DNA of 64,000 nucleotides, taken from the NCBI RefSeq assembly GCF_028369105.1, contig NZ_JAQNDO010000001.1:6914501-6978500 (forward strand). Reading direction: 5' to 3'. Below the pieces are notes generated by a model. That model was not told the origin of the DNA and ran no database searches. It saw only the letters and a program-made list of their open reading frames with translations. Positions 17,217 through 63,440 of the stretch are shown one piece after another (position 1 is the first letter of the stretch; the number at the start of each line of letters is the position of its first letter). Position numbers and translations under genes: made by a program. Source of the DNA: Polyangium mundeleinium. GTDB lineage: Bacteria > Myxococcota_A > Polyangia > Polyangiales > Polyangiaceae.

Positions 17217-17563
17217 AGCGTAGCGCCGGGGTTTCACCCCGGACCCGACCAGGGGTTGTCCACCCCTGGACCCGGACCAGCGCAAGCGCTGGACGCGGGG
17301 TCGATGAACTGCGCGATGCGCAGTTCATCGAACAGCCGCTGGCAAGACTGGCGACGACCCTGCCAACCAAGGCCGCAGCGCTGCAGGTTCAACCGGCAAC
17401 GTTTGCGTCGCCAGGTGGAGACACACCTGCATGGTCTTGCCACCGGCCCGGTGGAAGAACTGCGCTCCGCGCAGTTCTTCCACCTTCGGTCCAGGCCGTG
17501 CCTGGTCCGGGGTGAAGGGGGCGGACAGCCCCCTTCCGGGGTGCGGGGCAGAGCCTCGCGCGC
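17217..17563 (+). repeat. Hairpin-chain repeat, full copy B
   Basis: Fills the whole 347-bp gap between two convergent genes. Successive stems: CCGGGG/CCCCGG (17226-17242), CAGGGGT/ACCCCTG (17250-17268), CCAGCGC/GCGCTGG (17277-17292), palindrome M1 with 14-bp arms TCGATGAACTGCGC around loop GAT (17301-17331), a conserved spacer, palindrome M2 with 15-bp arms GTGGAAGAACTGCGC around loop TCC (17451-17483), then a CCAGGCC/GGCCTGG-type stem and GGGGGC/GCCCCC. Short open frames here are by-products of the repeat. Confidence 0.9.
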
Positions 17564-18946
17564 TCAAAGCTTGAAGTTCAGCGCCTTCGGCCGCGTCAGG
17601 TGCAGAAAGCCAAGCGCGGATAAGGACGAACCCTTGCCGCTGTCCTTCACCCCGGTCCAGGGCAGGGCTGGGTCGAGCGTGTCGCACTGGTTCATGTAGA
17701 CGGTGCCGACATCGAGCTGCTTCGCGAGGTGCTCGGCGCGTGCTCGGTCTCGCGTCCAGATGCTCGCTGTTAGGCCGAGATCGCTGTCGTTCGCTAGTGC
17801 CACGGCCTCCTCGTCCGAGTCCACGGACATGATCGGGAGCACGGGGCCGAACGTCTCGATCCGCATCACGTCCATGCGTGGATCGACGTTGACGAGCAGC
17901 GTGGGCTCGAAGAAACGCCCGCGCCCGTCGACCTGCGTTCGTTTGCCTCCCAAGAGAACCCGCGCGCCTGCGGCGACCGCGCGATCGATCTGCCCCTGGA
18001 TGAACGCTGGGTGATGCGGCTGCGCGATCGGGCCCATGTTCGTCTCGGCGGCCGTGGGATCGCCGAGACGGTAGGCTTTCATGAGCGCGAGACACCCCTC
18101 GACGAACTTCTCGTACAGGCTCCGGTGCACGTACGCGCGCTCGACTGCGCAACAGCTCTGGCCTGCGTTGTAACAGGCGCCGTCGACGATGTTCTCGATC
18201 GCCTTGTCGAGGTCGGCGTCCGCTGCCACGTACGCCGCGTCCTTGCCGCCGAGTTCGAGCCCCACGTCCACGAAGCGCGCTGCCGCGGCCGCTGCGTACA
18301 CCTTGTGCCCGCCCGCGACCGAGCCTGTGAACGCTACGTGATCCACGCGTGGATCGGCCACGATGCGCCCCGCCATCTCGTGATCGCAGTGCAGCGCCTG
18401 GACGAGCCCGGCCGGCGCCCCCGCGTCACGCAGCGCGTCGGCAAAGTGCTCTCCGCAGAGCGGCGACCGCGGCGAGTGCTTCAGGAGCACCGCGTTTCCT
18501 GCGAGCACGGCCGGGATCACCACGTTCACGGCTGTGAGCAGCGGATAGTTCCATGCGGGCAGGTTGAACACGACCCCCAGCGGGGCCCGCGCGATCCGCC
18601 GCTCGAAACCCTCTTGGGGCGGCAAGACCGTGTCTGCGAGCGACGCCTCGGCGATGCTCGCCATGTACCGGGCTCGCTTGGCCATCCCGCCTACCTCGCC
18701 ACGCGCTTGACGCAGGGGCTTGCCCATCATGGCCGTGATGTCGGCCGCGATCGCCTCGGCCCGCTCTTCCATCCGCGCGATGGCCGCGAGGCAGAGGGCC
18801 ACCCGGTCCTTCACGGGTGTCCCGGCGAAGGCCCGGGCGGCGGCCTGGGCGGCGTCCAGGGCCTGGTCCACCTCACCGGCTTCGGCGAGCGGGCGTCTGA
18901 CGGCCACGTCGAGGGTGTAGGGGTTGTCGACCACGAGCTCCAGCAT
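17564..18946 (-). CDS. Aldehyde dehydrogenase, NAD(P)-dependent
   Basis: 460-aa enzyme of the ALDH superfamily that oxidises aldehydes to acids. Visible landmarks: FNLPAWNYPL (the cofactor-side NxPAWN), KHSPRSP, FTGSVAGG, the ELGGKDAAYV segment with the general-base Glu, the catalytic loop GQSCCAVERAYVH (catalytic Cys is one of the two adjacent cysteines), ETFGPVLPI, and the C-terminal PWTGVKDSGKG. Length is slightly short of 475-490. The substrate is not evident; the set of motifs is close to succinate-semialdehyde-type enzymes. I chose the start at 18946 (MLELVVDNPYTL), since upstream codons are unrelated low-complexity sequence. It is divergent from the PP2C gene with 58 bp between, and its stop borders hairpin-repeat copy B. 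Confidence 0.92.
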   Translation of the reverse strand: MLELVVDNPYTLDVAVRRPLAEAGEVDQALDAAQAAARAFAGTPVKDRVALCLAAIARMEERAEAIAADITAMMGKPLRQARGEVGGMAKRARYMASIAEASLADTVLPPQEGFERRIARAPLGVVFNLPAWNYPLLTAVNVVIPAVLAGNAVLLKHSPRSPLCGEHFADALRDAGAPAGLVQALHCDHEMAGRIVADPRVDHVAFTGSVAGGHKVYAAAAAARFVDVGLELGGKDAAYVAADADLDKAIENIVDGACYNAGQSCCAVERAYVHRSLYEKFVEGCLALMKAYRLGDPTAAETNMGPIAQPHHPAFIQGQIDRAVAAGARVLLGGKRTQVDGRGRFFEPTLLVNVDPRMDVMRIETFGPVLPIMSVDSDEEAVALANDSDLGLTASIWTRDRARAEHLAKQLDVGTVYMNQCDTLDPALPWTGVKDSGKGSSLSALGFLHLTRPKALNFKL

Positions 18947-19004
18947 GGGGAGCAAGCTTAGGACCTGTTCGTCGGCCAGGAAATGTACGTACAATACCCG
19001 GCGG

Positions 19005-19781
19005 ATGCGAGCAGTCGCGGCAGGCCTATCCGACGTGGGCAGACAGCGGCACCACAACGAGGACCGCTTCATCCTTCTGCCGGAGTTCAACGTGTTCGTC
19101 GTGGCCGACGGCATGGGTGGACATCAGTCCGGCGAGGTGGCGAGCCGGATGGCCGCGAGTTCCATCGCCAAGTACTTCCGCAACGAGTGCAAGCCCGACG
19201 TAACCGTCGGCCAGCGCCTGCGCGCCGCCGTGCTCGAAGCGAACGCGAAGATCTTCGCCCGCGCTGACGACTCGCGCTTGCACCGCGGCATGGGCACGAC
19301 CGTCGTCGCGGGCGCGTACGCGCAGGATGATCGCACCTTCTTCGTCGCGCACGCGGGCGACAGCCGCTGCTACCGCCTGCGCGGCGACGAGCTCAAGCAG
19401 CTCACGCGCGACCACTCGCTCATCTCGGACGCGCTGCTCGAGCGGCCCGATCTCACCGAGCTCGATCTCAAGTACCTGCCGAAGAACGTCATCACGCGCG
19501 CGCTCGGCATCAGCCCCACGGTCGACGTCGACCTGCGCGCCGAGCGCGTCGAGCCACACGACGTCTTCGTCCTCTGCTCGGACGGCTTGCACGGGCTCGT
19601 GTCCGATGAGGAGATCGCGCTCATCGTGCGCGAGAGCGACATCCTCACCGAGGCGTGCACGCGCCTCATCGACACGGCGAACGCGAACGGCGGACGAGAC
19701 AACATCACGGTCGTGCTGGTCCGCATCGAGCCCGACGATCCGCCCTGGGCCGGCCGTCGCGCGAACTACACGCGCGCCTGA
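19005..19781 (+). CDS. PP2C-type Ser/Thr protein phosphatase
   Basis: 258-aa cytoplasmic phosphatase that reverses Ser/Thr kinase signalling. All PP2C metal and phosphate motifs are visible: GLSDVGRQRHHNEDR (RxxNED), VVADGMGGHQSGEVAS (DGMGG), GMGTTVV, FFVAHAGDSRCYRLR (GDSR), LCSDGLHGLV (SDG) and GGRDNITVVLV (DN). ATG at 19005 starts right before the first motif; an earlier start at 18924 would overlap the aldehyde dehydrogenase promoter. The full set of acidic ligands suggests it is active. Likely partners are the Ser/Thr kinases of the genome, including those at 53.8 and 60.3 kb, but nothing in the local context fixes which one. Confidence 0.94.
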   Translation: MRAVAAGLSDVGRQRHHNEDRFILLPEFNVFVVADGMGGHQSGEVASRMAASSIAKYFRNECKPDVTVGQRLRAAVLEANAKIFARADDSRLHRGMGTTVVAGAYAQDDRTFFVAHAGDSRCYRLRGDELKQLTRDHSLISDALLERPDLTELDLKYLPKNVITRALGISPTVDVDLRAERVEPHDVFVLCSDGLHGLVSDEEIALIVRESDILTEACTRLIDTANANGGRDNITVVLVRIEPDDPPWAGRRANYTRA

Positions 19782-19784
19782 AGC

Positions 19785-19958
19785 TCAAGGCCTCCGGCCG
19801 ATCGTCCCGGCCCGGAAGTACCAGGCGAGCGCGAGCACGGCGATCACCAGCAAGACCACCCAGAACCACGGCGATCGGGTCCTGGGGTTGGCCGTCTCGT
19901 CCACCATCTGCGCCGCGAAGAGGTTCGCGGCGGCGAGGATCGCGGTCGGTGCGTTCAT
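19785..19958 (-). CDS. Small single-pass membrane protein
   Basis: 57-aa predicted protein starting at 19958 (MNAPTAILAAANLFAAQMVDE), with GGGAGGGG-type ribosome binding sequence just upstream. One transmembrane helix (SPWFWVVLLVIAVLALAWYF, residues about 31-50) is followed by a short basic tail (RAGTIGRRP). The function is unknown. It is convergent with PP2C, with only 3 bp between stop codons, and lies downstream of the DUF2169 gene on the same strand, so it may be the end of that transcript. Confidence 0.6.
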   Translation of the reverse strand: MNAPTAILAAANLFAAQMVDETANPRTRSPWFWVVLLVIAVLALAWYFRAGTIGRRP

Positions 19959-20022
19959 CTTCCCCTCCCGCCGCTCACGTTGGGCCGGCGGGCGAGGCGT
20001 CAATCTTCACGCTGCGGTCACG

Positions 20023-22461
20023 TTATCGATCACTCGATCGTGGCCGCGAGGGCGTGGCTGCCTCGGCGTAGGTCGCGCCGCCGCGACCATCGGGGCTCAC
20101 CCGCGCGTACGCCCTGCGTGCCGAGGCGAGCGCTTCCCGCACCCGCGCGCGGAAGGCAGGATCGGCCTCCATGCGCTCCTGCCAGACGCGCTCGATCCGC
20201 ACGAGGCAGGTGCGCGCGAGGCCGAGCTCCGCGAGCACCACGTCGGCGTCGCTGTGCTCCACCGAGAACATCAGCCGAGCGTAGTCGGCGATCTCCAGCG
20301 CGCCTCGCTCGATCTCGAGCTGCTGCACGTACGCTCGATCGTAGGCGAGCCGGAGCTCGCTTCGCCCTTGCTCGGTCTCGGCGCGGATCGCGCCCACCCA
20401 CGTCCGCTCGGTTGACACCCAGCGCGGCTCGGACAAACCCATCTCCGACAGGATGCGCGCGCGGTCCTCGGGGCGGCGATCGATGCGTGCGGCCACGCAT
20501 GCGCAGAGCTCGAGCGGCAGGTCCGCGGTCATCAGCAGCGGCGAGGCCATGCTCGACGTCGAGGGCTTGCGACCGGCGCCGGACGGGCGCGGGGTCTCGA
20601 CCGACACGACCGAAGGCTTCGGCGACGGTGTGGCTGGCGCGGAGGGCAGGGCGGGGCCCGACGACGCCGCGGCCGACGCCGTGAAGAAGGCTGCGTTCTC
20701 TGCCGGCGAGACGGGCGACGTGGTCGTCGTGGAGGCGGCCCCCGCGACGGGCATGTAGCCCTTCGGCTCGGACCACGACAAAAGCCCCGGTGCGCGCTGC
20801 GTCGTGGGCGGGGCGTCGAGCAGGCGCGCGCTCGCGGCGACGGCCCCGCCGGGCAACGTGGGAGGCGGCGCGAGCGTCCCCGTCTTGCGCGTGCTTGGCA
20901 CCAGCGTCGGCGGCGCGACCGAATCGCGCTCCGTGATCACGCCGAAGCTCTCGGCCGGCGGCGGGCTCGTCGTGCCCGTGCGCGCGGTCGCGGGTGCGCG
21001 GTCGGCCGGATCTTCTTCCTCTTCGCCTCGTGCTTGCTCGCCCTGCGGCACGCTCGTCGGCGTGGGCGGGGGCGGCAGCCGCATCGCGGCCGCGTCGCCG
21101 GGCCAAACGTCCGTCTCCCACGAAGCCTCGACCTGCGCGGGCCTCTCGTCCTCGACCTCCGCGCGTGCTGCGCGCTCGACGAGCTGGCTCGGCCCGGGGA
21201 AGGCCGCGTCCACGACGAACCGCGACGACGCGCGATCCTCGATGAGGCGCTCGCCCGACGGCGGAATCGGCACCGAGCTGTCGCGCGGCCGCGCGGGCAG
21301 GCTCCCGCCCAGCGCGAGTGGCTCGACGGGCAGCGGAGTCGGCTCCTCCGGCGTGGGCTGCACGGGGGCCGACGGCAGGAGCGTGTACCCCTCGTCTTCC
21401 GCGATTTCGCCTTCGAAGGGGCGCGGGAGGATCGGCCGCGGGCTCGAATCCTCGGGCGCGATGGGAGGCGACTCCACGTCTTCGAGGCTCACCGTCATCT
21501 CGGGGCTCTCGGAGGCCACGATGATCCGGCCGAGCGCGTGCTCGTCGGGCTCGGACACCGGCGTCGACCCGCGCCAGGAAAGCACGGCCACGAGGCGCAC
21601 GCCGTCGATCCAGATCGTGTCGAGACGCACGTCGACCTCGAAAGGCCGCGCCGAACCCTGGTGCGCGTAAAACACGCGCGGGCGGATGTTCGGCAGACGC
21701 GACTCGAGGCGCGGCGCCTTGCGGGTCAGGTGCTCGAGCACGATGTTCGGCGCGGGCTCCAGCTCGTCGATCTGTTGCTCGCTCGGCGCGCAGTTGAAGA
21801 GCGAGAAGGGAAGCGACGCGGGGGCTGGGGCGTGCTCGGAGCGGATGCGGCGCGCGAACATGACGGCGTCGTCCGGGGCGCCGCGGTGCTCGGCGCGCCA
21901 GCGGATCGGCAGCGGGCCAAAGCCCGGCGTCGCGTTCGGCGGGCACGTCTCGCTCGTCTCGATGCGCGGCAAGGGCCAGCCTGCGCTCCCGGCGCCCGAG
22001 GGGATGCCGCTCATGTTCTCGCCTTGCATCGCGGCGAGCTCGTAGCGGAGCGGGATCGCGGAAAAACGCTCCGGCGCGCTCGGACGCAGGCTGCCCGTAT
22101 GACCCGGCATCCACACGCGTGGCCCACAGACGCGCAGCGACTTGTCGAAATGGCCCACGCGGAGGCGCGGCGTAAGAATCTCGGTCGGCATGCCGCCGGG
22201 AGCGAACGCGCGGCCCGAGAACGCGACGTCGATCTTCGGCTTGTACGGGACGAAGTCACTCGGCGCGAAGAGCGCCGCTTGCGGGTTGTGATCCCAGGAG
22301 ATATCGCCGTGGGCCGTGTCCTGCTTCGGCGCGAGGAGCGCCGTCTCGCCGTGGACCAGCGTGAACGTCGCCTTCACCCCGATCGTGAGGCGATAGCCGC
22401 CGGGGCGCTCTTCCCACACCACGGTGGCGACGCTGAATGGGCAGAGTCGGACGATCTCCAA
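20023..22461 (-). CDS. DUF2169 domain protein with Pro-rich linker
   Basis: 812-aa protein. Residues 1-300 match the DUF2169 layout as I know it: VEERPGGYRLTIGVKATFTL, the DISWDHNP segment, PYKPKIDVAFSGRAFAPGG, RLRVGHFDKSLRVCGPRVW and the Pro/Cys-rich NATPGFGPLP stretch. In other bacteria this domain occurs near type VI secretion and pentapeptide-repeat effector genes; none is seen here, so that link is family knowledge only. Residues about 300-640 form a long Pro/Ser/Thr linker; the last 170 residues contain two similar helical units (SEMGLSEPRWVSTERTW and LAELGLARTCLVRIERVW). The start is TTG at 22461, with an in-frame stop seven codons upstream; its RBS is poor. A perfect TGTGA-N6-TCACA palindrome lies 95 bp upstream. 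Confidence 0.8.
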   Translation of the reverse strand: MEIVRLCPFSVATVVWEERPGGYRLTIGVKATFTLVHGETALLAPKQDTAHGDISWDHNPQAALFAPSDFVPYKPKIDVAFSGRAFAPGGMPTEILTPRLRVGHFDKSLRVCGPRVWMPGHTGSLRPSAPERFSAIPLRYELAAMQGENMSGIPSGAGSAGWPLPRIETSETCPPNATPGFGPLPIRWRAEHRGAPDDAVMFARRIRSEHAPAPASLPFSLFNCAPSEQQIDELEPAPNIVLEHLTRKAPRLESRLPNIRPRVFYAHQGSARPFEVDVRLDTIWIDGVRLVAVLSWRGSTPVSEPDEHALGRIIVASESPEMTVSLEDVESPPIAPEDSSPRPILPRPFEGEIAEDEGYTLLPSAPVQPTPEEPTPLPVEPLALGGSLPARPRDSSVPIPPSGERLIEDRASSRFVVDAAFPGPSQLVERAARAEVEDERPAQVEASWETDVWPGDAAAMRLPPPPTPTSVPQGEQARGEEEEDPADRAPATARTGTTSPPPAESFGVITERDSVAPPTLVPSTRKTGTLAPPPTLPGGAVAASARLLDAPPTTQRAPGLLSWSEPKGYMPVAGAASTTTTSPVSPAENAAFFTASAAASSGPALPSAPATPSPKPSVVSVETPRPSGAGRKPSTSSMASPLLMTADLPLELCACVAARIDRRPEDRARILSEMGLSEPRWVSTERTWVGAIRAETEQGRSELRLAYDRAYVQQLEIERGALEIADYARLMFSVEHSDADVVLAELGLARTCLVRIERVWQERMEADPAFRARVREALASARRAYARVSPDGRGGATYAEAATPSRPRSSDR

Positions 22462-35424: not shown

Positions 35425-35790
35425 GGCAGCCGTTTCGCTGGGGCTTTGCCCCAGGCCCCACCCGGGGCTGTCCGCCCCGGGACCCGGACCAGCGCAAGCG
35501 CTGGACTCGGGGTCGATGAACTGCGCTCCGCGCAGTTCATCGAACAGCCGCTGACAAGACCAGCGACGATCCTGCCAGCCAAGACGGCGACGCTGCAGGT
35601 TCCACCAGCAGCGTGCCCGCCGCCGGCTTGAAATCCCCCTTCATGGTCTTGCCACCGGCCCGTTGGAAGAACTGCGCATCGCGCAGTTCTTCCAACGTCG
35701 GTCCAGGCCGTGCCTGGTTCGGGTCGAGGGGCGAACAGCCCCCGCGGGGTCCGGGGCAGCGCCCCGGCGCGACGCCTCCCGACGAGACCT
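35425..35790 (+). repeat. Hairpin-chain repeat, full copy C
   Basis: Same orientation as copy B, filling the 377-bp convergent gap. M1: arms TCGATGAACTGCGC around loop TCC (35513-35543). M2: 16-bp arms GTTGGAAGAACTGCGC around loop ATC (35662-35696). Flanking stems GGGGC/GCCCC, CCAGCGC/GCGCTGG and CCAGGCC/GCCTGG match copy B. The spacer between M1 and M2 is conserved with copy B (CTGCAGGTT and GGTCTTGCCACCGGCCCG are shared). Confidence 0.9.
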
Positions 35791-35794
35791 GCGC

Positions 35795-36430
35795 TCAGAT
35801 ATCGATGAGACCGGCCCGGACGGCGAGACGGGTCAGGTCGGCGACGCTGTGGGTCGCGACCTTTGCGCAGAGGCGTGCGCGGTGGGTCTCGACGGTCTTT
35901 ACGCTGATGGCGAGGTGCGCGGCCACCTCCTTTGCGCTGCTGCCCATCGCGAGCAGCCGTAAGACCTGACGCTCGCGCTCGGAGAGCGACGCGAGCACAT
36001 CGCCGCGGGCGGCGTCGCGCCGCTGGAGCGCGCGCACCATGGCTGCGCTCACGTCGGGTGAGACTGCGGTGCGGCCCTTGGCGACGGTGCGTATTGCGTC
36101 GATGAGCTCCTTCATGCGGCAGCGCTTCGACAGATACCCGTCGGCGCCCGCGCGCATCGCCTCGCCCACGCGGAACTCGTCACGGAAGGTGGAGAGCACG
36201 AGCACGCGCGTCTCGCCGAACGACTTGAGCTGCCGGATGAGCTCGGTCCCGCAACGGTCCGCGAGCGACAGCTCGATCACGACGACGTCGAAGGGCTGCC
36301 GGTTCTTCTGCGAGAGCGCGTCACGCGCGCTCTCCGCCTCCACGACGAGCGTGACATCGGGCTCGTCCCGCAGGGCCTTGGCCAGCGATTCCCGTACGAC
36401 ATTCTGATCATCGACCAGCAAGAGCTTCAT
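35795..36430 (-). CDS. NarL/FixJ response regulator lacking the phospho-acceptor Asp
   Basis: 211-aa transcription regulator with an N-terminal receiver (1-120) and a C-terminal LuxR-type helix-turn-helix (SLSERERQVLRLLAMGSSAK, then EVAAHLAISVKTVETHRARL). Acidic pocket residues Asp7-Asp8, the switch Ser80 and Lys102 are present, but the acceptor position reads VVVIEL, with Glu53 where an Asp is expected. This resembles a phosphomimetic state and suggests a response not driven by a histidine kinase. The start at 36430 (MKLLLVDDQNVV) begins at the first receiver strand. It is divergent from the acyltransferase gene, and the gap holds a 23-bp triple iteron. No sensor kinase gene is adjacent. Confidence 0.9.
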   Translation of the reverse strand: MKLLLVDDQNVVRESLAKALRDEPDVTLVVEAESARDALSQKNRQPFDVVVIELSLADRCGTELIRQLKSFGETRVLVLSTFRDEFRVGEAMRAGADGYLSKRCRMKELIDAIRTVAKGRTAVSPDVSAAMVRALQRRDAARGDVLASLSERERQVLRLLAMGSSAKEVAAHLAISVKTVETHRARLCAKVATHSVADLTRLAVRAGLIDI

Positions 36431-36771: not shown

Positions 36772-37665
36772 ATGCAGAGCGGCATCCGGCACATCGCGGA
36801 GGAGCTCCGCTCCGACTCCGCGTTCCTCCGTCGGCTGATGGTCAAGGTCGTGACGAACGGCCCCGAAGCGCTGCTCCGCTACGGCCCGCTGCTCTTCGGC
36901 CCCGCCTTCGCCGCCGGCCTGCACGAAAAACGCGAGAACGTGCGCCGCAACCTGCGCCGCATCCTCGGCCCACGCCCCCCCCTCGACGAGCTCGTCGACA
37001 TCGCCGCCGTCTTCACGAACTACGCGAGCTGCATGACCGAAGCGATGCTGCTCGGAACCCCGCGCGGCCGGGCGCTAGGGCTGCTCTCGAACGCGATCGG
37101 CGTCGACAACTACGAGGCATGCGCCGCCGCAGGGAAGGGCATCGTCATCGCCACAGCGCACCTCGGCGGCTGGGAGGTGGCAGGTCCGATGCTGCACAAG
37201 GTGCACGCAAAAAACGTGGTCGTGGTGATGGCCCGCGAACGCGACGAGCAAGCACGCGCGATGCAAGACGAGCTACGCGAGCGATCAGGCGTCAAGGTCG
37301 TGCACATCGGCGAGACAGCCTTCGACGCGTTGCCGCTGCTCCGGCACCTGCAGCAGGACGACGTCGTAGCCATGCAGATCGATCGCGTGCCCCCCAGGAT
37401 GCGCGCGCGCTCCGTCACACTCTGCGGCGCCCCCTTCCAGGTGCCCGAGGGCCCGCTGATGATCGCCGCACTGAGCGGCGCACCCATCATGCCCGTCTTC
37501 ACCCGCCGTCTCGGCTTCATGCACTACGAAGCCAACGTCCGCGCCCCCATCCACGTCCCCCGCCGGCCCACCGCACACGACCTCGACACAGCCGCGCAGC
37601 GCCTGATGGACGACCTCGGCGCGTTCCTGCAAGACAACCCCACGCAGTGGTTTCACTTCGTCTGA
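36772..37665 (+). CDS. LpxL/HtrB-type lysophospholipid acyltransferase
   Basis: 297-aa acyltransferase, membrane-associated, that probably adds an acyl chain to lipid A or a glycolipid. The catalytic HxxxxE box is HLGGWE (His130 to Glu135), and the conserved QIDRVPPRM and PEGPLMIAALSGAPIMPVF segments of the family follow. The C-terminal DNPTQWFHFV is also conserved. There is no long N-terminal transmembrane helix as in E. coli LpxL, but residues 20-45 are hydrophobic. I chose the ATG at 36772 by alignment with the family's start; a longer reading adds only a Pro/Arg-rich stretch. The 3' end adjoins hairpin-chain copy D. Confidence 0.85.
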   Translation: MQSGIRHIAEELRSDSAFLRRLMVKVVTNGPEALLRYGPLLFGPAFAAGLHEKRENVRRNLRRILGPRPPLDELVDIAAVFTNYASCMTEAMLLGTPRGRALGLLSNAIGVDNYEACAAAGKGIVIATAHLGGWEVAGPMLHKVHAKNVVVVMARERDEQARAMQDELRERSGVKVVHIGETAFDALPLLRHLQQDDVVAMQIDRVPPRMRARSVTLCGAPFQVPEGPLMIAALSGAPIMPVFTRRLGFMHYEANVRAPIHVPRRPTAHDLDTAAQRLMDDLGAFLQDNPTQWFHFV

Positions 37666-37689
37666 CGGGACGACGCTCTCGCCAGGGTC

Positions 37690-38065
37690 TCCTCCTCGTG
37701 GGGCGTCGCGCCGGGGCGCTGCCCCGGTCCCCGCGGGGGCTGTTCGCCCCTCGACCCGAACCAGGCACGGCCTGGACCGAGGGTGGAAGAACTGCGCTCC
37801 GCGCAGTTCTTCCAACGGGCCGGTGGCAAGACCATGGAGGTGCGTCTCAAGCTGGCGGCGGGCGCGTTGCTGGTGGAACCTGCAGCGCCGCGGTCGCTGT
37901 TGGCAGGATCGTCGCCGGTCTTGACTTGCGGCTGTTCGATGAACTGCGCGGAGCGCAGTTCATCGACCCCGCGTCCAGCGCTTGCGCTGGTCCGGGTCCA
38001 GGGGCGGACAGCCCCGGTGGGGCCTGGGGCAAAGCCCCAGCTCCGCGCCCCCAAGCGAAAACCCA
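37690..38065 (-). repeat. Hairpin-chain repeat, full copy D (reverse orientation)
   Basis: Fills the 418-bp gap between the acyltransferase and ABC ATPase genes, in the opposite orientation to copies B, C and E. In plus-strand reading the M2-type palindrome comes first (arms TGGAAGAACTGCGC, loop TCC, 37784-37814) and the M1-type palindrome second (arms GATGAACTGCGC, loop GGA, about 37938-37964), followed by CCAGCGC/GCGCTGG and the GGGGC-type stems. It therefore lies in reverse but still in a convergent gap. Confidence 0.9.
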
Positions 38066-38083
38066 CGGCTCAGCAGAACCTGC

Positions 38084-48807: not shown

Positions 48808-49164
48808 ATGAGCCGGAGAGGTGGTCGAAGCGTGCGCGCCCACGTGGGCGTTCGCGAAGGACGGACGGTGCATCGGCCGGATGGGGAGCTCGATGCCGTC
48901 GAAGGGTTGATCTATCGGTCGCGGAAGCTACGTCGGCGCGGCGATACGCGGGGCGCGCTCGTGCTGCTGCGGCAGGCGTGCTCGCAGGACGAGTGGCGCG
49001 CGCGAACGTTCACGCTGTTCGGCGCGCTCCTGTCGGAGGAAGGTCACCACGACGAGGCGGCGAAGGCACTTTTGCACGCGCGCTGGCTACGGCAGCGGGC
49101 CGGCGAGGCGCCACGCGCGGAGGTGACGGCGCGGCTGCTCGAAGCGGAGCTGGCCGCGCGTTAG
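48808..49164 (+). CDS. Small TPR-like protein ending in the 128-bp element
   Basis: 118-aa basic protein. Residues 30-105 have two to three helix pairs with TPR-type spacing (LIYRSRKLRRRGDTRGALVL, TFTLFGALLSEEGHHDEAAK, LLHARWLRQRAGEAPRAEVT). The N terminus is Arg-rich. GGAAGGG lies before the ATG. The TAG stop at 49162-49164 is the first three bases of the second 128-bp element, so the true original C terminus may have been lost; the protein ends LEAELAAR. Function is unknown. Confidence 0.65.
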   Translation: MSRRGGRSVRAHVGVREGRTVHRPDGELDAVEGLIYRSRKLRRRGDTRGALVLLRQACSQDEWRARTFTLFGALLSEEGHHDEAAKALLHARWLRQRAGEAPRAEVTARLLEAELAAR

Positions 49165-49289
49165 TAGCCTGTGGACTTATCTGCTGCGCGCCCCGGATCG
49201 TCGGTCGACATCGCTCGAAATCCTTCAGGATTCCTCGCTCCGTCGCCCTAGCTTCGGGGCGCTCGCGACGATCATTCCACAGGCTGCTA
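49162..49289 (-). mobile_element. 128-bp MITE-like element, copy 2 (inverted)
   Basis: Reverse-orientation copy of the element at 9038-9165. Left end TAGTAGCCTGTGGA (one mismatch to the consensus TAGCAGCCTGTGGA) and right end TCCACAGGCTGCTA. The interior matches copy 1 apart from one base (TTCGGGG versus CCGGGG), making 2 differences in 128. The first three bases are the stop of the TPR-like gene, and the last three are, on the minus strand, the TAG stop of the zinc-ribbon gene at 49287. Both flanking genes therefore terminate inside it. Confidence 0.8.
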
Positions 49290-49532
49290 GGACGCCGCGC
49301 GGACGGGGCGCAAGGCGCCCACATAGAACGAGCGGAGGGTGTTGCGGCCGCAGAAGGGGCAGGCCCACCCGATGTCGAAGCGCTCGCCCGAGGCCCCGAT
49401 GCTGTGGGCCGGCGCGACCTCGCGCGCTCGCCCTCGCGACGCCGTGCCGGTGACGACGTGATGTTTCTCGTCGAGCGTCGCAAGAAGGATCGCCTGGCAC
49501 TCGCATCGGCTCTGCACGCTGAACTGGCTCAT
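49287..49532 (-). CDS. Short Cys-pair (zinc-ribbon-like) protein
   Basis: 81-aa protein from the ATG at 49532 (MSQFSVQSRCECQAILLATL). It has CEC near the N terminus and CPFCGRNTLRS later, so a four-Cys zinc ribbon is likely. An HSIGASGERFDIGW segment precedes the second pair. The stop lies within the right end of the 128-bp element, so the C-terminal part may have been changed by insertion. A longer reading from 50189 runs through unrelated low-complexity sequence and was not used. Function is unknown; it parallels the zinc-ribbon gene that ends in copy 1 of the element. Confidence 0.65.
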   Translation of the reverse strand: MSQFSVQSRCECQAILLATLDEKHHVVTGTASRGRAREVAPAHSIGASGERFDIGWACPFCGRNTLRSFYVGALRPVRAAS

Positions 49533-49734: not shown

Positions 49735-50241
49735 ATGGGGGCGCTTGAGGGGTTCCGAGCGACGATGATCGATGCACGAACCGACGTCGCGCCGCGGAGC
49801 CGCCGGATCCTGGTGGCAAGAGATCCGCGGCTCTCGACGTGTGATGCGCTCGTCCAGGGGCTCGAGCCGCTGATCGAGGATGTCGAGCTGGTCGAGGCGT
49901 ACTCCGTGGAGGCGGCGCGCTCGTGGGCGAAGGGCGGGCCCTTCGATCTCTGCCTCGTTTGTCTGGATCTGCCGCCGGCGCCGCGCGGCGGGGCGAGGCT
50001 CGCCAGGGAGCTCATGGGGCGCGGCAAGAAGGTCGTTTTGATCACGCGGAGCCTGCGGTGGCTGCCGGCGGAGGACCTGGAGCTGCGCAGCTTGCCCTGG
50101 ATCGTGCCCGAGGCAGATCCGACGAGCGTGCTCGCGTTCCTCCAGAAGGAGGCGGCGCCCGTCGTCTCCCAGGCCCGCACGCGCGCCAAGACGCTCCCGC
50201 CGATGACGGAGCGCGAGCGGCCCGCGGCGAACGAGACCTAA
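49735..50241 (+). CDS. Receiver-like protein without a standard acceptor Asp
   Basis: 168-aa stand-alone protein with the fold pattern of a response-regulator receiver: RILVARDPRLST (strand 1, normally DD), FDLCLVCLDLPPAP (strand 3) and KKVVLITR (strand 4). The usual acceptor position seems to be Cys (LVC), with an Asp two residues later, and only one of the first acidic pair is present. Phosphorylation is therefore uncertain. A tail of 35 residues is polar. GGAGGGG lies before the ATG. It is convergent with the large lipoprotein gene, with a 4-bp overlap of the ends. No kinase or output domain is attached. Confidence 0.6.
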   Translation: MGALEGFRATMIDARTDVAPRSRRILVARDPRLSTCDALVQGLEPLIEDVELVEAYSVEAARSWAKGGPFDLCLVCLDLPPAPRGGARLARELMGRGKKVVLITRSLRWLPAEDLELRSLPWIVPEADPTSVLAFLQKEAAPVVSQARTRAKTLPPMTERERPAANET

Positions 50242-57766: not shown

Positions 57767-58804
57767 GTGCGCCTCCATCGTCTCGCTCCGCTCGCCGCCG
57801 CCGCCACTGTCGCGCTCGCGCTCCTTTCGCCGGGGACTGCTTCCTCGCAGACGGCCGAGGAGAAGGCGGCCGCGCGTTCCCTGGCGCAACAAGGCGCCGA
57901 GGCCCTGCAAAAGAAGGACTACGCCGAGGCGATCGATCTCCTCAGCCGCGCCGAGGCGATCATCCACGCGCCGCCGCACCTTCTGCTGATCGGGCGCGGG
58001 CAGGTGGGTCTCGGCAAGCTGGTTGCCGCGCGCGAGTCGTTTCTCAAGATCATCCGCGAGGAGTTGCCCGCGAGCGCGCCCGCCGCGTTCAAGCGAGCCC
58101 AGGAGGACGCGAGGACCGAGCTTGCCGCGATCGAGCCCCGCATCGGCTCGCTGCGCATCGTGCTCACCGGTCCGGGCGCGACCGATCCCGCGAAGGTGAC
58201 GGTCAAGCTCGACGAGCAGGGCGTCACGTCCGCGCTCATCGGTGTGCACCGGCCGATCGATCCGGGCAAACACGTGGTGACAGCGACCGCGGCCGGGCGG
58301 AGCCCCGTCACGCAAGAGGTCTCGCTCGGAGACGGCGAGAAGAAAGAAGTGTCGCTCGAAGTGGAGGCGCCGGCGGCGGGCGCTGCGTTGCCGGACGGGA
58401 GCGGACAAACCGGCGGCGGCGGTGGGCCGGTGGGCCCGGAGAAACCGCAGGGCACGAGCCCGCTGAAGTACGTGGGCATCGCGGGCATGGGCCTCGGCGG
58501 CGCGGGGATCATCGCCGGGACGATCTTCACGGTGATGTTCGTGAGCAAGTCGGGCGACGCGGACGCCGCGTTCAAGGCCTGTCCGAAGCCGTGCCCCGAC
58601 GACCAGCAGGCGAACATCACCGCGCTCGACGAGGCGGCGGCCTCGCGCGGGACGGGCGCGATCGTGGGCTTCGCGGCGGGCGCGGCGCTGGCCGGCGCCG
58701 GCGTCGCGTTGTTCCTGATCGGGGGCAAGCAGGACAAACCAGCCGGCGCGAGCGTCATGCCGTACGTCGCGCCGAACGGCGCTGGGCTCGTCGGTCGGTT
58801 CTGA
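57767..58804 (+). CDS. PEGA-domain protein with TPR-like start and transmembrane helices
   Basis: 345-aa exported protein. GTG at 57767 has GAGGAG about ten bases upstream and starts a signal peptide (MRLHRLAPLAAAATVALALL). A TPR-like helical part (SLAQQGAEALQKKDYAEAID and following) is followed by a PEGA-type beta domain (about 125-200: RIGSLRIVLTG, VTVKLDEQGV, HRPIDPGKHVVTATAAGRSP). After a Gly/Pro linker, two hydrophobic helices (about 235-258 and 293-318) lie around a Cys-Pro segment (KACPKPCPDDQQ). Such proteins are common next to myxobacterial Ser/Thr kinases, and the kinase gene is the convergent neighbour. Function is unknown. Confidence 0.8.
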   Translation: MRLHRLAPLAAAATVALALLSPGTASSQTAEEKAAARSLAQQGAEALQKKDYAEAIDLLSRAEAIIHAPPHLLLIGRGQVGLGKLVAARESFLKIIREELPASAPAAFKRAQEDARTELAAIEPRIGSLRIVLTGPGATDPAKVTVKLDEQGVTSALIGVHRPIDPGKHVVTATAAGRSPVTQEVSLGDGEKKEVSLEVEAPAAGAALPDGSGQTGGGGGPVGPEKPQGTSPLKYVGIAGMGLGGAGIIAGTIFTVMFVSKSGDADAAFKACPKPCPDDQQANITALDEAAASRGTGAIVGFAAGAALAGAGVALFLIGGKQDKPAGASVMPYVAPNGAGLVGRF

Positions 58805-58843: not shown

Positions 58844-58869
58844 TGGCGGGCGCTGGTTTCCCGCGTCGT

Positions 58870-60354
58870 TCAGTATCCGAAGTCGCCGCCCGTCGTGCCG
58901 CCCTTGTTCGGCTTGTTCGTCGACGTCGCGGAGGGCTTGGGGAGAGGACCGCCGAGTTTCACCGAGGGGGTCCCGAGCGGAGCCGCCGAGGTCGTCGGGG
59001 TCGGCGCCGCGCTCGTGGCGGGCTCCGCCGTCTTCGTGTCCGGCGGCGTGGGGTCGACGTCCGCGGCGCTCGGGGTCGGCGGCGTGGCCGGCGTGGCCGC
59101 GGTCGTCGGGGCGAGCGGGGCGACGCTCGCGGATGGGATCGAGCCTCCGGCTTGCGTCGACTCTTTCTTGCCGAGCATCAGGTACCCGGCGACGCCGAGG
59201 CCCGAGAGCAGGACGAGCCCGACAAGCCCGCCCACGACCGCGCCCGCGCGGGACGGCTTCGGCGTGGCCGTGCCCGAGGTGTGGCCCCACGCGTTCGCCG
59301 TGCCTTGCGAGCCGTCGAGCGAGGTGCCGGTTTGTCCGGTCACGCCCATGCCGGGCACGCCAGGCGGCTGCGTCGTCATCCCGACGCCCGGGATCACGCC
59401 GGGCAGCGGCGTCGCCGTCAACGGGCCGGGGGCGGCGAGCACGCCGGGGGGCTGCGTCGGCAAACGCGGGCCAGGGACGATGCTTTGTCCACCACGCGCG
59501 GCTTGCCAGGCGAGGAGCGTCTCCTTGAACTCGGCGCACGACTGGAAGCGGTGCACCTGTTCGCGGGCCATGGCGCGCTGGATGATCAGGGAGAACTCGG
59601 GATCGAGGTCCGGGACGAACTGCTGCGGCGGAGGCGGCAGTTCGAGCGCGATCTTGAAGAGCAGCTCGTTGAAGGTCTCGGCGCGGAAGGGGACCTGTCC
59701 CGTCGTCGCCTGGTAGAGCACGACGCCGAGCGCGTAGATGTCGCTGCGCGCGTCGACGACGGCCATGCCGCGTGCTTGCTCGGGCGACATGTAGTAGGGC
59801 GTGCCGACGACCGAGCCGGCCCGCGTCACGTTCATCTCTTCGCCGCCGATCTGCGAGAACTTCGAGACGCCGAAGTCGAGGATCTTGATGAAGTCGACGC
59901 GGCCCGCCTTGTTCGGCAGGATGAAGATGTTGTCGGGCTTGAGATCGCGATGGATGATCCCCGCGGCGTGCGCGGCGCCGAGCGCGTCGAGGACCTGCGC
60001 CATGAGCGGGATGCTCTGCGCCGGCGGGAGGCGGCCCGAGCGCTTGATCCGCGCGCTCAAGGTCTCGCCATCGAGGTACTCCATGACCATGTAGCGCGAC
60101 TGGTCGGGGAGAACGCCGAGGTCGAGCACCTCGCAAATGTGCTCCGAGCCGATGCGCCCCGCGGCCTGCGCTTCGCGCTCGAAACGCGCGACGGTCTCGC
60201 CGGAGCCGGAGACGCTCGCGTGCAGGACCTTGATGGCGACGCGGCGCTTGATCCGCGTGTTCTCACCCTCGAAGACCGCGCCCATCCCTCCCGTGCCGAG
60301 GAGGCGGACGATGCGGTACTTGTCGTCGATGACTTGGCCGGGGGTGAGCGTCAT
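58870..60354 (-). CDS. Ser/Thr protein kinase with Pro-rich tail and one helix
   Basis: 494-aa Hanks-type kinase. LGTGGMGAVFEG (P-loop), VAIKVL (Lys42), HRDLKPDNIF (from His135, Asp137), LDFGVSK and MSPEQARG are intact, so it should be active. Residues 295-370 are Gly/Pro/Thr-rich, a transmembrane helix (AGAVVGGLVGLVLLSGLGVAGYLM) follows, and the tail is Pro/Ala/Thr-rich and probably extracytoplasmic. I used the start at 60354 (MTLTPGQVIDDKYRIVR), which is where myxobacterial kinases begin. It is divergent from the Hsp70-fold gene (182 bp between starts), and a shared regulatory region is likely. Confidence 0.92.
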   Translation of the reverse strand: MTLTPGQVIDDKYRIVRLLGTGGMGAVFEGENTRIKRRVAIKVLHASVSGSGETVARFEREAQAAGRIGSEHICEVLDLGVLPDQSRYMVMEYLDGETLSARIKRSGRLPPAQSIPLMAQVLDALGAAHAAGIIHRDLKPDNIFILPNKAGRVDFIKILDFGVSKFSQIGGEEMNVTRAGSVVGTPYYMSPEQARGMAVVDARSDIYALGVVLYQATTGQVPFRAETFNELLFKIALELPPPPQQFVPDLDPEFSLIIQRAMAREQVHRFQSCAEFKETLLAWQAARGGQSIVPGPRLPTQPPGVLAAPGPLTATPLPGVIPGVGMTTQPPGVPGMGVTGQTGTSLDGSQGTANAWGHTSGTATPKPSRAGAVVGGLVGLVLLSGLGVAGYLMLGKKESTQAGGSIPSASVAPLAPTTAATPATPPTPSAADVDPTPPDTKTAEPATSAAPTPTTSAAPLGTPSVKLGGPLPKPSATSTNKPNKGGTTGGDFGY

Positions 60355-60536
60355 CGGATCATCGCTCGCGAGAAGCGGAAGGAATCCAACACGTCTCGAG
60401 CTTACCACGGGTGCCGGGCGCGAGCCCAGGAGGCGGGTGGGGGAAAAGGCGGGGGCGCTCTGCGGGCCGCGGGGGTCACGGATGCCCCAAAGGGCCTTTG
60501 CCGACCGCCTGCATGTTCGTGTTAAGGTCGCCCCGT

Positions 60537-63062
60537 ATGTCGCTCTACGAGCTGTCGATCGACGACGCCCACCTTCGCGAGGCCGAGAGGCTCACTTCGC
60601 TCGAGGGGAGGGGCTTTCCGACGCTGGTGACAAGGTGGGAGTCGCGCCTGTTCGATCAGCCTTGGTCCACCACGCTTGTGCTCGATTACACGATCCCCCT
60701 GCCTCCACTGCCAGCCTCGCAGTCGTTCATCGAGGTGCGGATCGCGGCGTATGTGGGCGGCGCGCCGACGAAGTTCCTCTACTTCGGCACCGAGATGAAC
60801 GCGAGCGTGCCCCGCATCGGCCCCGAGATGGAAAACCAGATCGGGTGGACGAAGCAGTACCAGGAGTACAGGCTCGACGAACACACCTCGCCCGTCCCGT
60901 ACCTCAAGCTGATCCAGACGACACCGCGCATCTACGGCGCAGGCGCGCAGGACTACTACAGCCCCGCGATCAAGGTGGAGCGGTACGACGGCGCGGCGTC
61001 GAGTGATCAGCTCGCCGATCTGTTCCCGACGGTGGTGGCGAACCTGCCCTGCGTGAAAGGGCACCTGCTCACGGATCCCTCGGCCGGGCTCTGGAACGGC
61101 GCGCGGTACGTGGGGCAGACGGCGATCGCGATCCTGCGCCAGGGGAAGGTCGTCGGTATCCATCGGCGGATCGGGCGCACGGACAAGGACGCAGTGCCGC
61201 CCGAGGTGAAGCGGCGCGATCCGAAGCACGACGTGCTGAAGGAGTGGGTGTCGATCGATCTCGGATCGAGCACGACGGTCGTCGCCCTGCGCGGCGATCG
61301 CAGCGCGCCGGAGCTCGTGCGCATCGGCGCGACGAGCGCGCCCGTGGTGTCGGCCGACTACGAGAACCCGAGCGAGATCTCGTTCGAGCAGCTCGGACGG
61401 ACGCTGAAGGCGTGGCGGGATCGCGTGATCCTGCCGATGACACGCTGGGGCGAGGTGACGATCGGGCACGCGGCACGCACCGCGCGCAAGCGAGGCGGCG
61501 AGGAGTCGCTCGCGCTCAGCGCCGCGACGCTGACGCACCTGCCGATGCTGCGCGAGCGCGTGGACCGCAAGGAGAAGATCTCGCTGCGCGGGCGCGGGGA
61601 TCCCGAGACGCAAGAGACGCTCAAGAAGCCGGCGCCGCCCATCATCGACGAGGACGGGATCGGCGCGCATGATCCCTTCGATCCGATCGAGCTCTACGCC
61701 TACTACATCGGCCTGCACGTGAACCACAGGACGCGCGGTATCCACACGCGTTACCTCGTGGCGATGCCCTCGGGCTGGAACGAGGATCGGCGCAAGAGCG
61801 CGCTCGTCGCCGTGCGTCGCGGCATCTTCCGCAGCCTGCCCGCCGGGATGCTCGAGTTCCACGACATGGACATGCTGAACGTGGTCGACGCAGGCCCCGC
61901 AGCGATCCCGTTCGCAGCCTTCGCATTCCGCGCATTCGCCGTGCAACCGAAGCCCGATCCGGTGCCCTTCGTGGCGCTCGACGCGGGCGCGAGCGAGACG
62001 GGCGTGGTCTTCGGTCTGTTCCGCAACGCCAAACCCGATGAGCAGATGGAGGGCGGCCACGAGCGGATGATCGAGTACCTGGAGCCGACGAGCATCCCGT
62101 GGTTCGGCGGCGAGCGGCTCCTGCACAGGCTCGCCTACCGGATCTACGTGGCCGCGGAGGCGAGCGTGAACGCGGCGCGCGTGCCCTTTGATCGGCCGAG
62201 CGAGGAGACCCCCGTGGGCGCGCTCGAGCACCTGCTCGTCGCAAGTCCGGAAGGGCGTGCGAACGCCGAGGTCTTGAAGGACGCGATCCGGCCGCTGCTC
62301 GAAGGCGGCGACGCGCGCCCGCCCAAGTCGATCAAGCTCGCCACGCTCGACGGTCCGTTCTTCGACTTCCCGCTCGAAGTGGATCGGCAGGCGATCGCGG
62401 CAGAGATCGACGGCTGGTTCTCCGAGGCCGTGGAGGAGGTGCGCGTGGGCCTGGAGAAGGCGCTCGAGAAGATCGGGCGCGATCCGGATCCCTACGACGG
62501 CCTGCGCGTGATGCTCGGCGGTCGCATGAGCATGCACCCGGCGCTGCTCGACAAACTCACGGCGACCTTGCCGAAGAACGTGAAGATCCACCGGTTCATC
62601 GAGCCCGATCGGCTGAACCTCGGCGCGCCAACCGTGAAGACGGCCTGCGCACTCGGCGCCCTCGCGATGCGCTTCGAACGCATCGGCGCAAGCGTGCGCG
62701 CCGAGAAGCGCGACACCTTCAAGTACCGCGTGGGCCGCAACCGCCACGGCCAGCTCGCCGACGTGCTCGATCCGTCCGTCGAGTACGACGTGTGGCGCGA
62801 GGTCGGCGCATGCACGAAGCCAAACGTCGAGGTGCTGTACATGCGCGCCGAGGACGACGGCGAAGTCGCAGCCGACGATCCGCGCGTGGAGATCGCAATC
62901 TGCAAGCTCGGCGCGACAGCCGTCGGGCAGCGCATCTACATGCGCGCAGTGGGTCCGATCCGCGTCGAGGTGAGCGTCGGGCCGCCCGGCGGCGAGCCCG
63001 CCGCAGGCGCGCCGGTGTGGTGGATCGATCTGAAGGAAAACCTCGCGCGGCCGAAGGCGTAG
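60537..63062 (+). CDS. Large Hsp70/actin-fold ATPase-like protein
   Basis: 841-aa protein. Residues 1-225 form a beta-rich N-terminal extension (TLVLDYTIPLPPLPASQSF, QSFIEVRIAAYVGGAPTKFL) seen in no DnaK. The ATPase core starts at EWVSIDLGSSTTVVAL (phosphate-1 loop, Asp241-Leu-Gly-Ser-Ser-Thr-Thr), continues with VPFVALDAGASETGVVF (phosphate-2, Asp482-Ala-Gly) and LRVMLGGRMSMHP (adenosine-type loop, Met659-Leu-Gly-Gly). No substrate-binding domain of DnaK type is recognised; the C terminus (about 740-841) is another beta region. The start ATG at 60537 (MSLYELSIDDAHLREAE) was chosen; longer readings are low complexity. The kinase gene is divergent, so the two may act together. Function is unknown. 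Confidence 0.8.
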   Translation: MSLYELSIDDAHLREAERLTSLEGRGFPTLVTRWESRLFDQPWSTTLVLDYTIPLPPLPASQSFIEVRIAAYVGGAPTKFLYFGTEMNASVPRIGPEMENQIGWTKQYQEYRLDEHTSPVPYLKLIQTTPRIYGAGAQDYYSPAIKVERYDGAASSDQLADLFPTVVANLPCVKGHLLTDPSAGLWNGARYVGQTAIAILRQGKVVGIHRRIGRTDKDAVPPEVKRRDPKHDVLKEWVSIDLGSSTTVVALRGDRSAPELVRIGATSAPVVSADYENPSEISFEQLGRTLKAWRDRVILPMTRWGEVTIGHAARTARKRGGEESLALSAATLTHLPMLRERVDRKEKISLRGRGDPETQETLKKPAPPIIDEDGIGAHDPFDPIELYAYYIGLHVNHRTRGIHTRYLVAMPSGWNEDRRKSALVAVRRGIFRSLPAGMLEFHDMDMLNVVDAGPAAIPFAAFAFRAFAVQPKPDPVPFVALDAGASETGVVFGLFRNAKPDEQMEGGHERMIEYLEPTSIPWFGGERLLHRLAYRIYVAAEASVNAARVPFDRPSEETPVGALEHLLVASPEGRANAEVLKDAIRPLLEGGDARPPKSIKLATLDGPFFDFPLEVDRQAIAAEIDGWFSEAVEEVRVGLEKALEKIGRDPDPYDGLRVMLGGRMSMHPALLDKLTATLPKNVKIHRFIEPDRLNLGAPTVKTACALGALAMRFERIGASVRAEKRDTFKYRVGRNRHGQLADVLDPSVEYDVWREVGACTKPNVEVLYMRAEDDGEVAADDPRVEIAICKLGATAVGQRIYMRAVGPIRVEVSVGPPGGEPAAGAPVWWIDLKENLARPKA

Positions 63063-63065
63063 ATT

Positions 63066-63440
63066 TTAGGCGCTGCGCCGGGGTTTCACCCCGGGGCCCC
63101 GACCAGGGGTTGTCCACCCCTGGACCCGGACCAGCGCAAGCGCTGGACGCGGGGTCGATGAACTGCGCATCGCGCAGTTCATCGAACAGCCAGGGTCAAG
63201 ACCGGCGACGATCCTGCCAACCAACACGGCAGCGCTGCAGGTTCAACCAGCAACGCGCCCGCTGCCGGCTTGAAATCCACCTTCAAGGTCTTGCCACCGG
63301 CCCGTTGGAAGAACTGCGCGGAGCGCAGTTCTTCCACCCTCGGTCCAGGCCGTGCCTGGTTCGGGTCGAGGGGCGAACAGCCCCCGCGGGGTCCGGGGCA
63401 GCGCCCCGGCGCAGCGGCCCCAAGAAGCTCCCCATCCTCA
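63066..63440 (+). repeat. Hairpin-chain repeat, full copy E
   Basis: Same orientation as copies B and C, in the 402-bp gap between the Hsp70-fold gene and the last gene. M1: arms TCGATGAACTGCGC around loop ATC (63155-63185). M2: arms GGAAGAACTGCGC around loop GGA (about 63307-63335). The opening CCGGGG/CCCCGG stem and CAGGGGT/ACCCCTG follow copy B. The conserved GGTCTTGCCACCGGCCCG precedes M2. Confidence 0.9.

What the first reader, a model, noticed from the sequence alone, without database searches (positions are those of the whole stretch)
17217..63440. Hairpin-chain repeat family restricted to convergent gene gaps
Four full copies (17217, 35425, 37690, 63066) and one variant copy (8893) each consist of six to eight consecutive stems. 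All sit between convergent genes. Every convergent gap over 100 bp contains this or the 128-bp element, whereas short convergent gaps use simple hairpins or overlapping stops. No divergent or co-directional gap has one. This suggests a bidirectional terminator or transcription insulator, or a mobile repeat selected for such sites.
Basis: partly seen in the sequence, partly recalled or inferred. Interest (0 to 1): 0.8.

Follow-up and report, generated by a model that had tools for sequence, protein, structure and literature searches.

The report
Mobile hairpin chains between convergent genes
A short piece of DNA made of eight hairpins has spread to about a hundred or more places in a soil bacterium's chromosome, mostly just behind the ends of genes, and it appears to be a passenger of a Tn5-like jumping gene that in turn uses those same hairpins as its landing site.

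Summary
The repeats are real: four full copies (~340 bp, eight hairpins) and one short variant, all in convergent gaps of the window. The absolute restriction is not: in 2.0 Mb of the same chromosome 37 of 285 convergent, 25 of 952 co-directional and 2 of 285 divergent gaps hold a copy, and only 37 of 83 convergent gaps over 100 bp do. What holds is placement behind stop codons and avoidance of promoter-side gaps. Five congeners (Polyangium) differ in presence, even where two stop codons overlap. A minority of copies keep an outer inverted repeat, CTGAGCAYKGGTCTCATC, that also ends a 1.5-kb insertion sequence with a Tn5-like transposase and 9-bp target duplications. That IS lands in the element's own hairpins: 20 of 22 sites in three genomes. 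Local stems covary; the alternative long fold-back does not. Best reading: a non-autonomous, MITE-like family of Tn5-like ends that doubles as landing pad for the IS and perhaps serves as a two-way 3'-end barrier. Only one element copy shows a clean duplication, and termination is untested. IS insertion into palindromic repeats is known (ISRm22); the combination is a new variant.

The parts
17217..17560 (+). full hairpin-chain element, between stops of genes ending 17216 (+) and 17564 (-)
   Evidence: also present in G056, G060, G061 and, in two matched pieces, in G062; G014 has a 21-bp gap here
35429..35798 (+). full element; right end keeps a degenerate terminal repeat 35781-35798 whose TCA is the stop codon of the minus-strand gene
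37685..38073 (-). full element in minus orientation with degenerate terminal-repeat remnants on both sides (read by eye); gap is 1 bp in G014 and G056
63067..63420 (+). full element between genes ending 63062 (+) and 63465 (-)
8903..9022 (+). short variant: H1-H3 followed by a different long hairpin (8984-9022, read by eye)
   Evidence: orthologous gap 5 bp in G014 and G056; short variants in G061 and G062, a full copy in G060
17494..17502 (+). H6 hairpin top GGCCGTGCC, the type of site in which the IS lands in other copies (empty here)
35706..35714 (+). H6 hairpin top GGCCGTGCC, IS landing-site type (empty here)
37764..37772 (-). H6 hairpin top (GGCACGGCC on +), IS landing-site type (empty here)
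63348..63356 (+). H6 hairpin top GGCCGTGCC, IS landing-site type (empty here)

Best explanation
A Polyangium family of non-autonomous mobile elements (about 340 bp, about 395 bp in the one short-core copy with both terminal repeats, about 1 kb in long-core variants) that share their outer inverted repeats with a resident 1504-bp Tn5-like (IS4 family) insertion sequence and are most likely moved by that transposase or a close relative. Shown: copies are present or absent at orthologous sites; a minority of ends keep the IS-type terminal repeat; the IS makes 9-bp duplications and lands almost only in the small H3/H6 hairpins (twice in H2) of these elements; one intact long-core element sits, with a perfect 9-bp duplication, in the apex of a simple hairpin between convergent genes; the local stems are kept paired. 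Inferred: the transposase prefers the tops of GC-rich palindromes, so elements and IS nest in each other and in terminator-like hairpins, and purifying selection removes insertions in genes and promoters; together this gives the 3'-end and convergent placement. Inferred, weaker (about 0.4): once there, the chain acts as a two-way transcript-end barrier (terminator without U-tract, or 3'-end stabiliser), which is why hairpins persist while terminal repeats are lost.
For: Presence/absence in five congeners on the gene tree (G014,((G056,G062),(G061,(own,G060)))), rooted by me on the most distant genome: gaps 37665/38084, 50241/50238 and 58804/58870 each need two gains, or one gain and a loss that restored the empty gap. 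Terminal repeat running straight into H1 in many of the loci; within 45 nt of 106 outer element ends, 15 hold it with at most 4 edits against 16 of 2000 random windows. IS with near-identical ends (1-2 differences of 18 to the element ends, by eye), 475-aa transposase: PF14706, PF01609, PF02281, NF033590, Tn5 chain 1mus E 4.5e-36. Target duplications: of 4 complete IS copies in this genome two 9/9, one 8/9, one none; the G061 copy 9/9; element 2855429-2856439 9/9 CCGGCCAGG. IS sites inside the element: 20 of 22, the element being 18.9 kb of 2.0 Mb (binomial 8e-39). All 11 sites whose adjacent 9-mer is GGCCGTGCC or GGCACGGCC lie in elements, though in the sample those 9-mers occur 113 times outside and 47 times inside; the surrounding 15-bp palindrome occurs 44 times, all inside. 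Local stems: 98.7% of cells paired, 39 cells changed on both sides against 11.2 in shuffles (0 of 500 reach it); the fold-back equals its shuffles.
Against: Only 1 of 7 two-ended element candidates (repeats with up to 4 substitutions) shows a 9-bp duplication. Most copies have no recognisable terminal repeat: 8 of 106 ends with at most 2 substitutions. Apart from the ends the element has no convincing similarity to the IS (best of 41 copies: 17 nt, E 0.005), so it is not a simple deletion derivative. G056 has 183 palindromes but no IS match. The empty site at 50241/50238 shows no obvious hairpin, so hairpin targeting does not explain every gain. In one search, 58 of 68 pairs never vary; the double changes are in H1, H2, H3 and H5 only, and shuffles there are not probabilities. 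Fifteen more distant Tn5-like IS loci gave no recognisable ends. Nothing here measures transcription.
Confidence: 0.75

Rival explanations
1. Placement is produced by selection alone: the element inserts at random and survives only where it harms nothing, chiefly between convergent genes.
For: Divergent gaps are almost empty (2 of 285) and co-directional copies hug the upstream stop, which selection alone would give; some filled sites show no obvious hairpin in congeners.
Against: Available convergent sequence is small (33.8 kb against 120.6 kb co-directional) yet holds more copies (37 against 25); the same short gaps were probably hit more than once among six species (precise loss is the alternative); the IS with the same ends is clearly target-specific.
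Confidence: 0.3
2. A host-maintained bidirectional terminator/insulator sequence, spread and kept for that function, whose link with the IS is incidental (the IS merely exploits an existing palindromic repeat).
For: Local stems kept paired with compensatory changes; copies without a recognisable terminal repeat are the majority; the element stands where three of six genomes have a simple hairpin at 58804/58870.
Against: Terminal repeats match the IS ends at the expected place in a minority of copies; one copy has a perfect 9-bp duplication; 46 of 83 long convergent gaps lack it; no run of five T or A in 30 of 30 copies; terminator-like calls around two copies are at shuffle level (2 found, 1.6 expected; one of them touches the outer edge of the 37690 copy at 38067-38080).
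Confidence: 0.15
3. A REP/BIME-type family moved by a RAYT (Y1 tyrosine) transposase.
For: Short palindromes, over 100 copies, 3'-end placement and IS landing in palindromes resemble REPs; the 17217 copy and several short variants begin with GCGTAGCGCC, which holds GTAG at the foot of H1.
Against: No Y1_Tnp match in the own genome (6 candidates scored, none a match); 3 of the other 5 congeners have one; GTAG/CTAC in only 1 of 30 aligned copies; terminal repeats point to a Tn5-like enzyme.
Confidence: 0.04
4. The perfect pairing of each stem reflects DNA-level correction of palindromes (template switching, gene conversion between copies), not selection for hairpin RNA.
For: H4/H5 loop triplets occur as reverse-complement pairs (GAT/ATC, TCC/GGA, ACC/GGT), as if hairpins invert; the best 29 other copies are 87-91% identical to the query and may convert each other.
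Against: Nothing here excludes it; it also leaves the mobile-element reading untouched.
Confidence: 0.35

Closest known systems
ISRm22 and REP elements of Sinorhizobium meliloti (Tobes and Pareja 2006, PMC1525189; passages read)
   Same: IS4-family IS inserted in palindromic intergenic repeats (its nine copies there), palindromic targets discussed with Tn5, repeats frequent between convergent genes
   Different: Here the repeat shares its own outer inverted repeats with the IS, so target and passenger are one family; the chain has eight stems and a variable core; no RAYT in this genome
Bacterial MITEs (review PMC10969869; passages read), including pneumococcal BOX/RUP/SPRITE clusters
   Same: non-coding, IS-like terminal inverted repeats, stable secondary structure, elements inserting into one another
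   Different: GC-rich (the review calls MITEs typically AT-rich), Tn5-like ends, most copies without recognisable terminal repeats, hairpins reused as IS landing site
REP/BIME palindromes
   Same: high copy number, 3'-end and convergent placement, IS targets
   Different: no Y1 transposase in this genome; GTAG only at the edge of some copies
Tn5/IS50
   Same: transposase domains, CTG-starting ends (IS50 end recalled), 9-bp duplication
   Different: strong preference for one hairpin family (Tn5's looser targeting is recalled, not looked up)
Mycobacterial MIRUs (recalled, not looked up)
   Same: insertion at overlapping gene ends so that both reading frames survive
   Different: MIRUs at co-directional stop/start overlaps; here also at convergent stop/stop overlaps

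Membership tests
MITE of a Tn5-like (IS50-group) IS | terminal inverted repeats shared with an autonomous IS | tested here: met
   in a minority of copies (15 of 106 ends with at most 4 edits)
MITE of a Tn5-like (IS50-group) IS | target-site duplication of the IS length (9 bp) | tested here: inconclusive
   1 of 7 two-ended candidates, 9/9
MITE of a Tn5-like (IS50-group) IS | no transposase gene inside | tested here: met
   longest ORF in 30 copies 78 aa; long-core variants not tested
MITE of a Tn5-like (IS50-group) IS | internal sequence derived from the IS by deletion | tested here: not met
   no convincing match to 41 copies; this feature is, from general knowledge, not required of all MITEs
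MITE of a Tn5-like (IS50-group) IS | mobilisation in trans by the transposase | not testable with these tools
   needs a transposition assay
REP/BIME | associated RAYT (Y1 transposase) in the genome | tested here: not met
   own genome; 3 of the other 5 congeners have a Y1_Tnp match
REP/BIME | GTAG/GGAG-type tetranucleotide at the stem base | tested here: inconclusive
   GTAG or CTAC in 1 of 30 aligned copies, but GCGTAGCGCC at the edge of the 17217 copy and of short variants; GGAG not tested
IS4 family, Tn5 group (the 1504-bp IS) | Tn5-type DNA-binding, DDE and dimerisation domains | tested here: met
IS4 family, Tn5 group (the 1504-bp IS) | 9-bp duplication and CTG ends | tested here: met
intrinsic terminator | GC-rich stem followed by a U-tract | tested here: not met
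   no run of 5 T or A in 30 copies; at shuffle level; U-less terminators are not excluded
bidirectional terminator/insulator | stops transcripts from both sides | not testable with these tools
   no expression data held

The most novel reading that the evidence does not exclude
A self-sustaining pair in which a Tn5-like IS has evolved to recognise the hairpins of its own non-autonomous passenger: the passenger colonises 3' ends, brings ready-made harmless landing pads for the IS, and pays its way by acting as a selected two-way transcript-end barrier between convergent genes.
Probability: 0.3. Interest if true: 0.8.

Novelty: new variant of a known kind. Interest (0 to 1): 0.55.

Why it matters
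It turns an anonymous repeat into a testable system: a Tn5 relative with a natural, narrow target, and about a hundred or more natural hairpin chains placed behind genes. If the barrier role holds, it is a case of a mobile element supplying transcript ends in a 13-Mb GC-rich genome; if not, it is a clean example of how target choice plus selection shapes where mobile DNA survives.

Tried and rejected
RAYT/REP membership: no Y1_Tnp match in the own genome. CTAG or stop-codon targeting: suggested by CTAG/CTAA on the two sides at 50241/50238 but dropped because most of the 35 full copies have other flanks and because a 9-bp duplication spanning overlapping stops gives the same picture. Known RNA family: the window's only Rfam match at gathering score is the tRNA. 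Global fold-back as the conserved structure: no better than shuffles. Exact terminal repeat in viral contigs: 0. Ends and duplications of 15 more distant Tn5-like IS loci in other genomes of the family: none found by a simple end finder, so the generality of hairpin targeting is open. Literature: searches listed no title that reports this repeat (several lists were cut: 15 of 75, 15 of 42, 8 of 682; one search found none); PMC1525189 and PMC10969869 were read as passages only, the rest seen as search listings.

Rows dropped or limited: in the IS-site count (22) I left out L205 and L210 (70-74% identical IS in G062, flanks not in the element) and L206, L209, L218, L221 (no IS end reached); L214 is a right end and may be the partner of L220, L226 or L228, which would make it 19 of 21; for L204 only the right flank matched the profile; the G060 end pairs L217/L231 and L211/L223 are paired by identical 9-mers, not by assembly. 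In one search an eighth non-IS pair (L197 1406-3003, a repeat paired with an IS end) was not counted, and of the seven counted L180 ends at an IS remnant. The 30 aligned copies are the best-scoring ones of 40 scored out of 234 candidates, so they lean to the query's subfamily. The two structures were both drawn from one copy (L013). Gene calls come from my own codon-score gene finder.

Full report
What was reported and what is there. The finding describes a repeat made of six to eight hairpins at four places plus a variant, confined to convergent gaps. The four full copies align end to end: hairpins H1 to H4, a core of about 120 nt, then H5 to H8. The short variant at 8893 has H1 to H3 and a different long hairpin, and is followed by the unrelated 128-bp element. 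Each strand of the 63070 copy can also fold as one long hairpin, far below shuffled controls. Rfam has no match for it at gathering score.

Where copies lie. The window is 6.91-6.98 Mb of a 13.24-Mb contig. The H4 palindrome with up to two mismatches occurs 118 times and the inner palindrome GAACTGCGC-NNN-GCGCAGTTC 177 times in this genome, 183 and 37 times in two congeners, and once in 1 of the 57 other family genomes searched. In 2.0 Mb of this chromosome a profile found 75 matches in 62 clusters. With my own gene calls, 37 of 285 convergent, 25 of 952 co-directional and 2 of 285 divergent gaps carry it. So 'enriched in convergent gaps' is right (p 1.1e-12), 'never elsewhere' is wrong, and 'every long convergent gap' is wrong: 46 of 83 gaps over 100 bp lack it. 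Co-directional copies are nearer the upstream stop in 19 of 25 gaps, and in loci of named Polyangium genomes in 17 of 17. The common rule is: behind a stop codon, not in front of a start.

It comes and goes. Five congeners were compared across the window. At 50241/50238 the two stop codons overlap by 4 bp in this genome, G060 and G014, while G056, G061 and G062 carry an element there, in G062 in the other orientation. At 37665/38084 G014 and G056 have 1 bp, the others an element (in G062 a short variant). At 58804/58870 this genome, G060 and G014 have a simple hairpin and the other three an element (in G056 a partial one). At 19781/19785 only G061 has one, a short variant. On the gene tree of about 12 kb, rooted by me on G014, the first three cases need two gains each, or one gain plus a loss that restored the empty gap. 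In G060 and G061 at 17216/17564 the plus-strand reading frame, read by eye, now ends at a TAG at the element's edge.

What moves it. Beyond the profile, a minority of ends continue into CTGAGCAYKGGTCTCATC: 15 of 106 outer ends with at most four edits, against 16 of 2000 random windows; only 8 of 106 with at most two substitutions. Searching the genome for this end turned up four pairs 1.5 kb apart: a 1504-bp insertion sequence with a 475-aa transposase carrying the Tn5 DNA-binding, DDE and dimerisation domains and matching Tn5 transposase structures. Two of the four complete copies have perfect 9-bp duplications, one 8 of 9, one none. One long-core element with intact ends, 2855429-2856439, has a perfect 9-bp duplication CCGGCCAGG; its empty site reads cccctctCCGGCCAGGagagggg, the apex of a simple hairpin between convergent genes. 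Six other two-ended candidates show no duplication, so transposition of the element by this enzyme rests on one clean case plus shared ends. The element's interior is not derived from the IS, and G056 has many palindromes but no IS match.

Where the IS lands. The IS is multicopy in G060, where 15 contigs end inside it, and present in G061. Of 22 distinct sites for copies at least 86% identical, 20 lie in a hairpin element: 18 at the small hairpin H6 or its counterpart H3 (15 of these at profile positions 275-283 or next to them), two in H2. In 11 of the 18 the adjacent 9-mer is GGCCGTGCC or GGCACGGCC; both flanks were seen for only some sites, because most G060 sites are contig ends. The element makes up 18.9 kb of the 2.0-Mb sample. 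The bare 9-mer is commoner outside elements (113) than inside (47), but the 15-bp palindrome around it occurs only in elements (44 of 44), so the wider hairpin or element context matters. The two sites outside are L216 in this genome and L211/L223 in G060.

What is conserved. In the 30 best-matching copies the eight local stems pair in 98.7% of cells, with 39 cells changed on both sides against 11.2 in shuffles, none of 500 reaching it; 58 of 68 pairs never vary, and the double changes lie in H1, H2, H3 and H5. The long fold-back pairs in 91.6%, the same as its shuffles. The cause may be selection for hairpins or correction of palindromes at DNA level; loop triplets that occur as reverse complements favour at least some of the latter.

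How it most likely works. A Tn5-like transposase that favours tops of GC-rich palindromes inserts both its IS and this passenger; purifying selection removes insertions that break genes or promoters; what remains lies behind stops, above all between convergent genes, and nests within itself. The hairpins then plausibly serve as two-way transcript ends. The last step is inference: no run of five T or A in 30 copies, terminator-like calls at shuffle level, and no expression data.

Relation to what is known. IS4-family insertion into palindromic repeats was described for ISRm22 in S. meliloti, with the remark that such repeats are frequent between convergent genes (PMC1525189, passages), and MITEs that insert into one another are reviewed in PMC10969869 (passages). 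New here, as far as the listings show, is a repeat that is at once the likely passenger and the preferred target of a Tn5-like IS, in a myxobacterium. Hence 'new variant of a known kind'.

Noticed in passing
window 9037-9165 and 49162-49290: 128-bp inverted-repeat element with ends TAGCAGCCTGTGGA. The 49164/49287 copy sits at a gap whose stops overlap by 4 bp in G014, G056, G060 and G062; G061 has an unrelated 102-bp hairpin-like insertion at the same gap. Three copies in the 2.0-Mb sample, all in convergent gaps.
   Followed up: partly
G000:C1 whole contig: Of 94 H4-flank matches (up to 1 mismatch), 93 lie between 2.3 and 9.5 Mb and one at 10.0 Mb, while the only DnaA C-terminal domain match is at 11.65 Mb: the subfamily looks nearly absent from the origin side. 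One further H4 palindrome lies at 1.31 Mb.
   Followed up: partly
G000:C1:6.8-8.03 Mb and 8.03-9.5 Mb: Element orientation comes in blocks: 19 of 23 plus in the first stretch, 1 of 12 in the second; runs test by permutation p 0.009, stretches chosen after seeing the data. Unexplained.
   Followed up: no
G000:C1:6418162-6419142, 6279318-6280182, 2855460-2856412, 7262839-7263634: Long-core variants: the two arms are separated by roughly 400-550 nt with short degenerate tandem repeats.
   Followed up: no
H4 and H5 loops of the copies: Loop triplets come as reverse-complement pairs (GAT/ATC, TCC/GGA, ACC/GGT), as if single hairpins invert.
   Followed up: no
G060 contig ends (L207, L211, L214, L217, L220, L222-L232): Fifteen contigs of this congener end inside the 1504-bp IS (one at both ends), so the IS, which mostly sits in hairpin elements, breaks the assembly there.
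   Followed up: yes
L198 (G000:C1:11488555-11488632): A much shorter palindrome with the same kind of ends (TGCGCATGGGTCTCATC ... GATGAGACCCATGCAAA, about 78 bp) and no hairpin chain, on the origin side of the chromosome.
   Followed up: no
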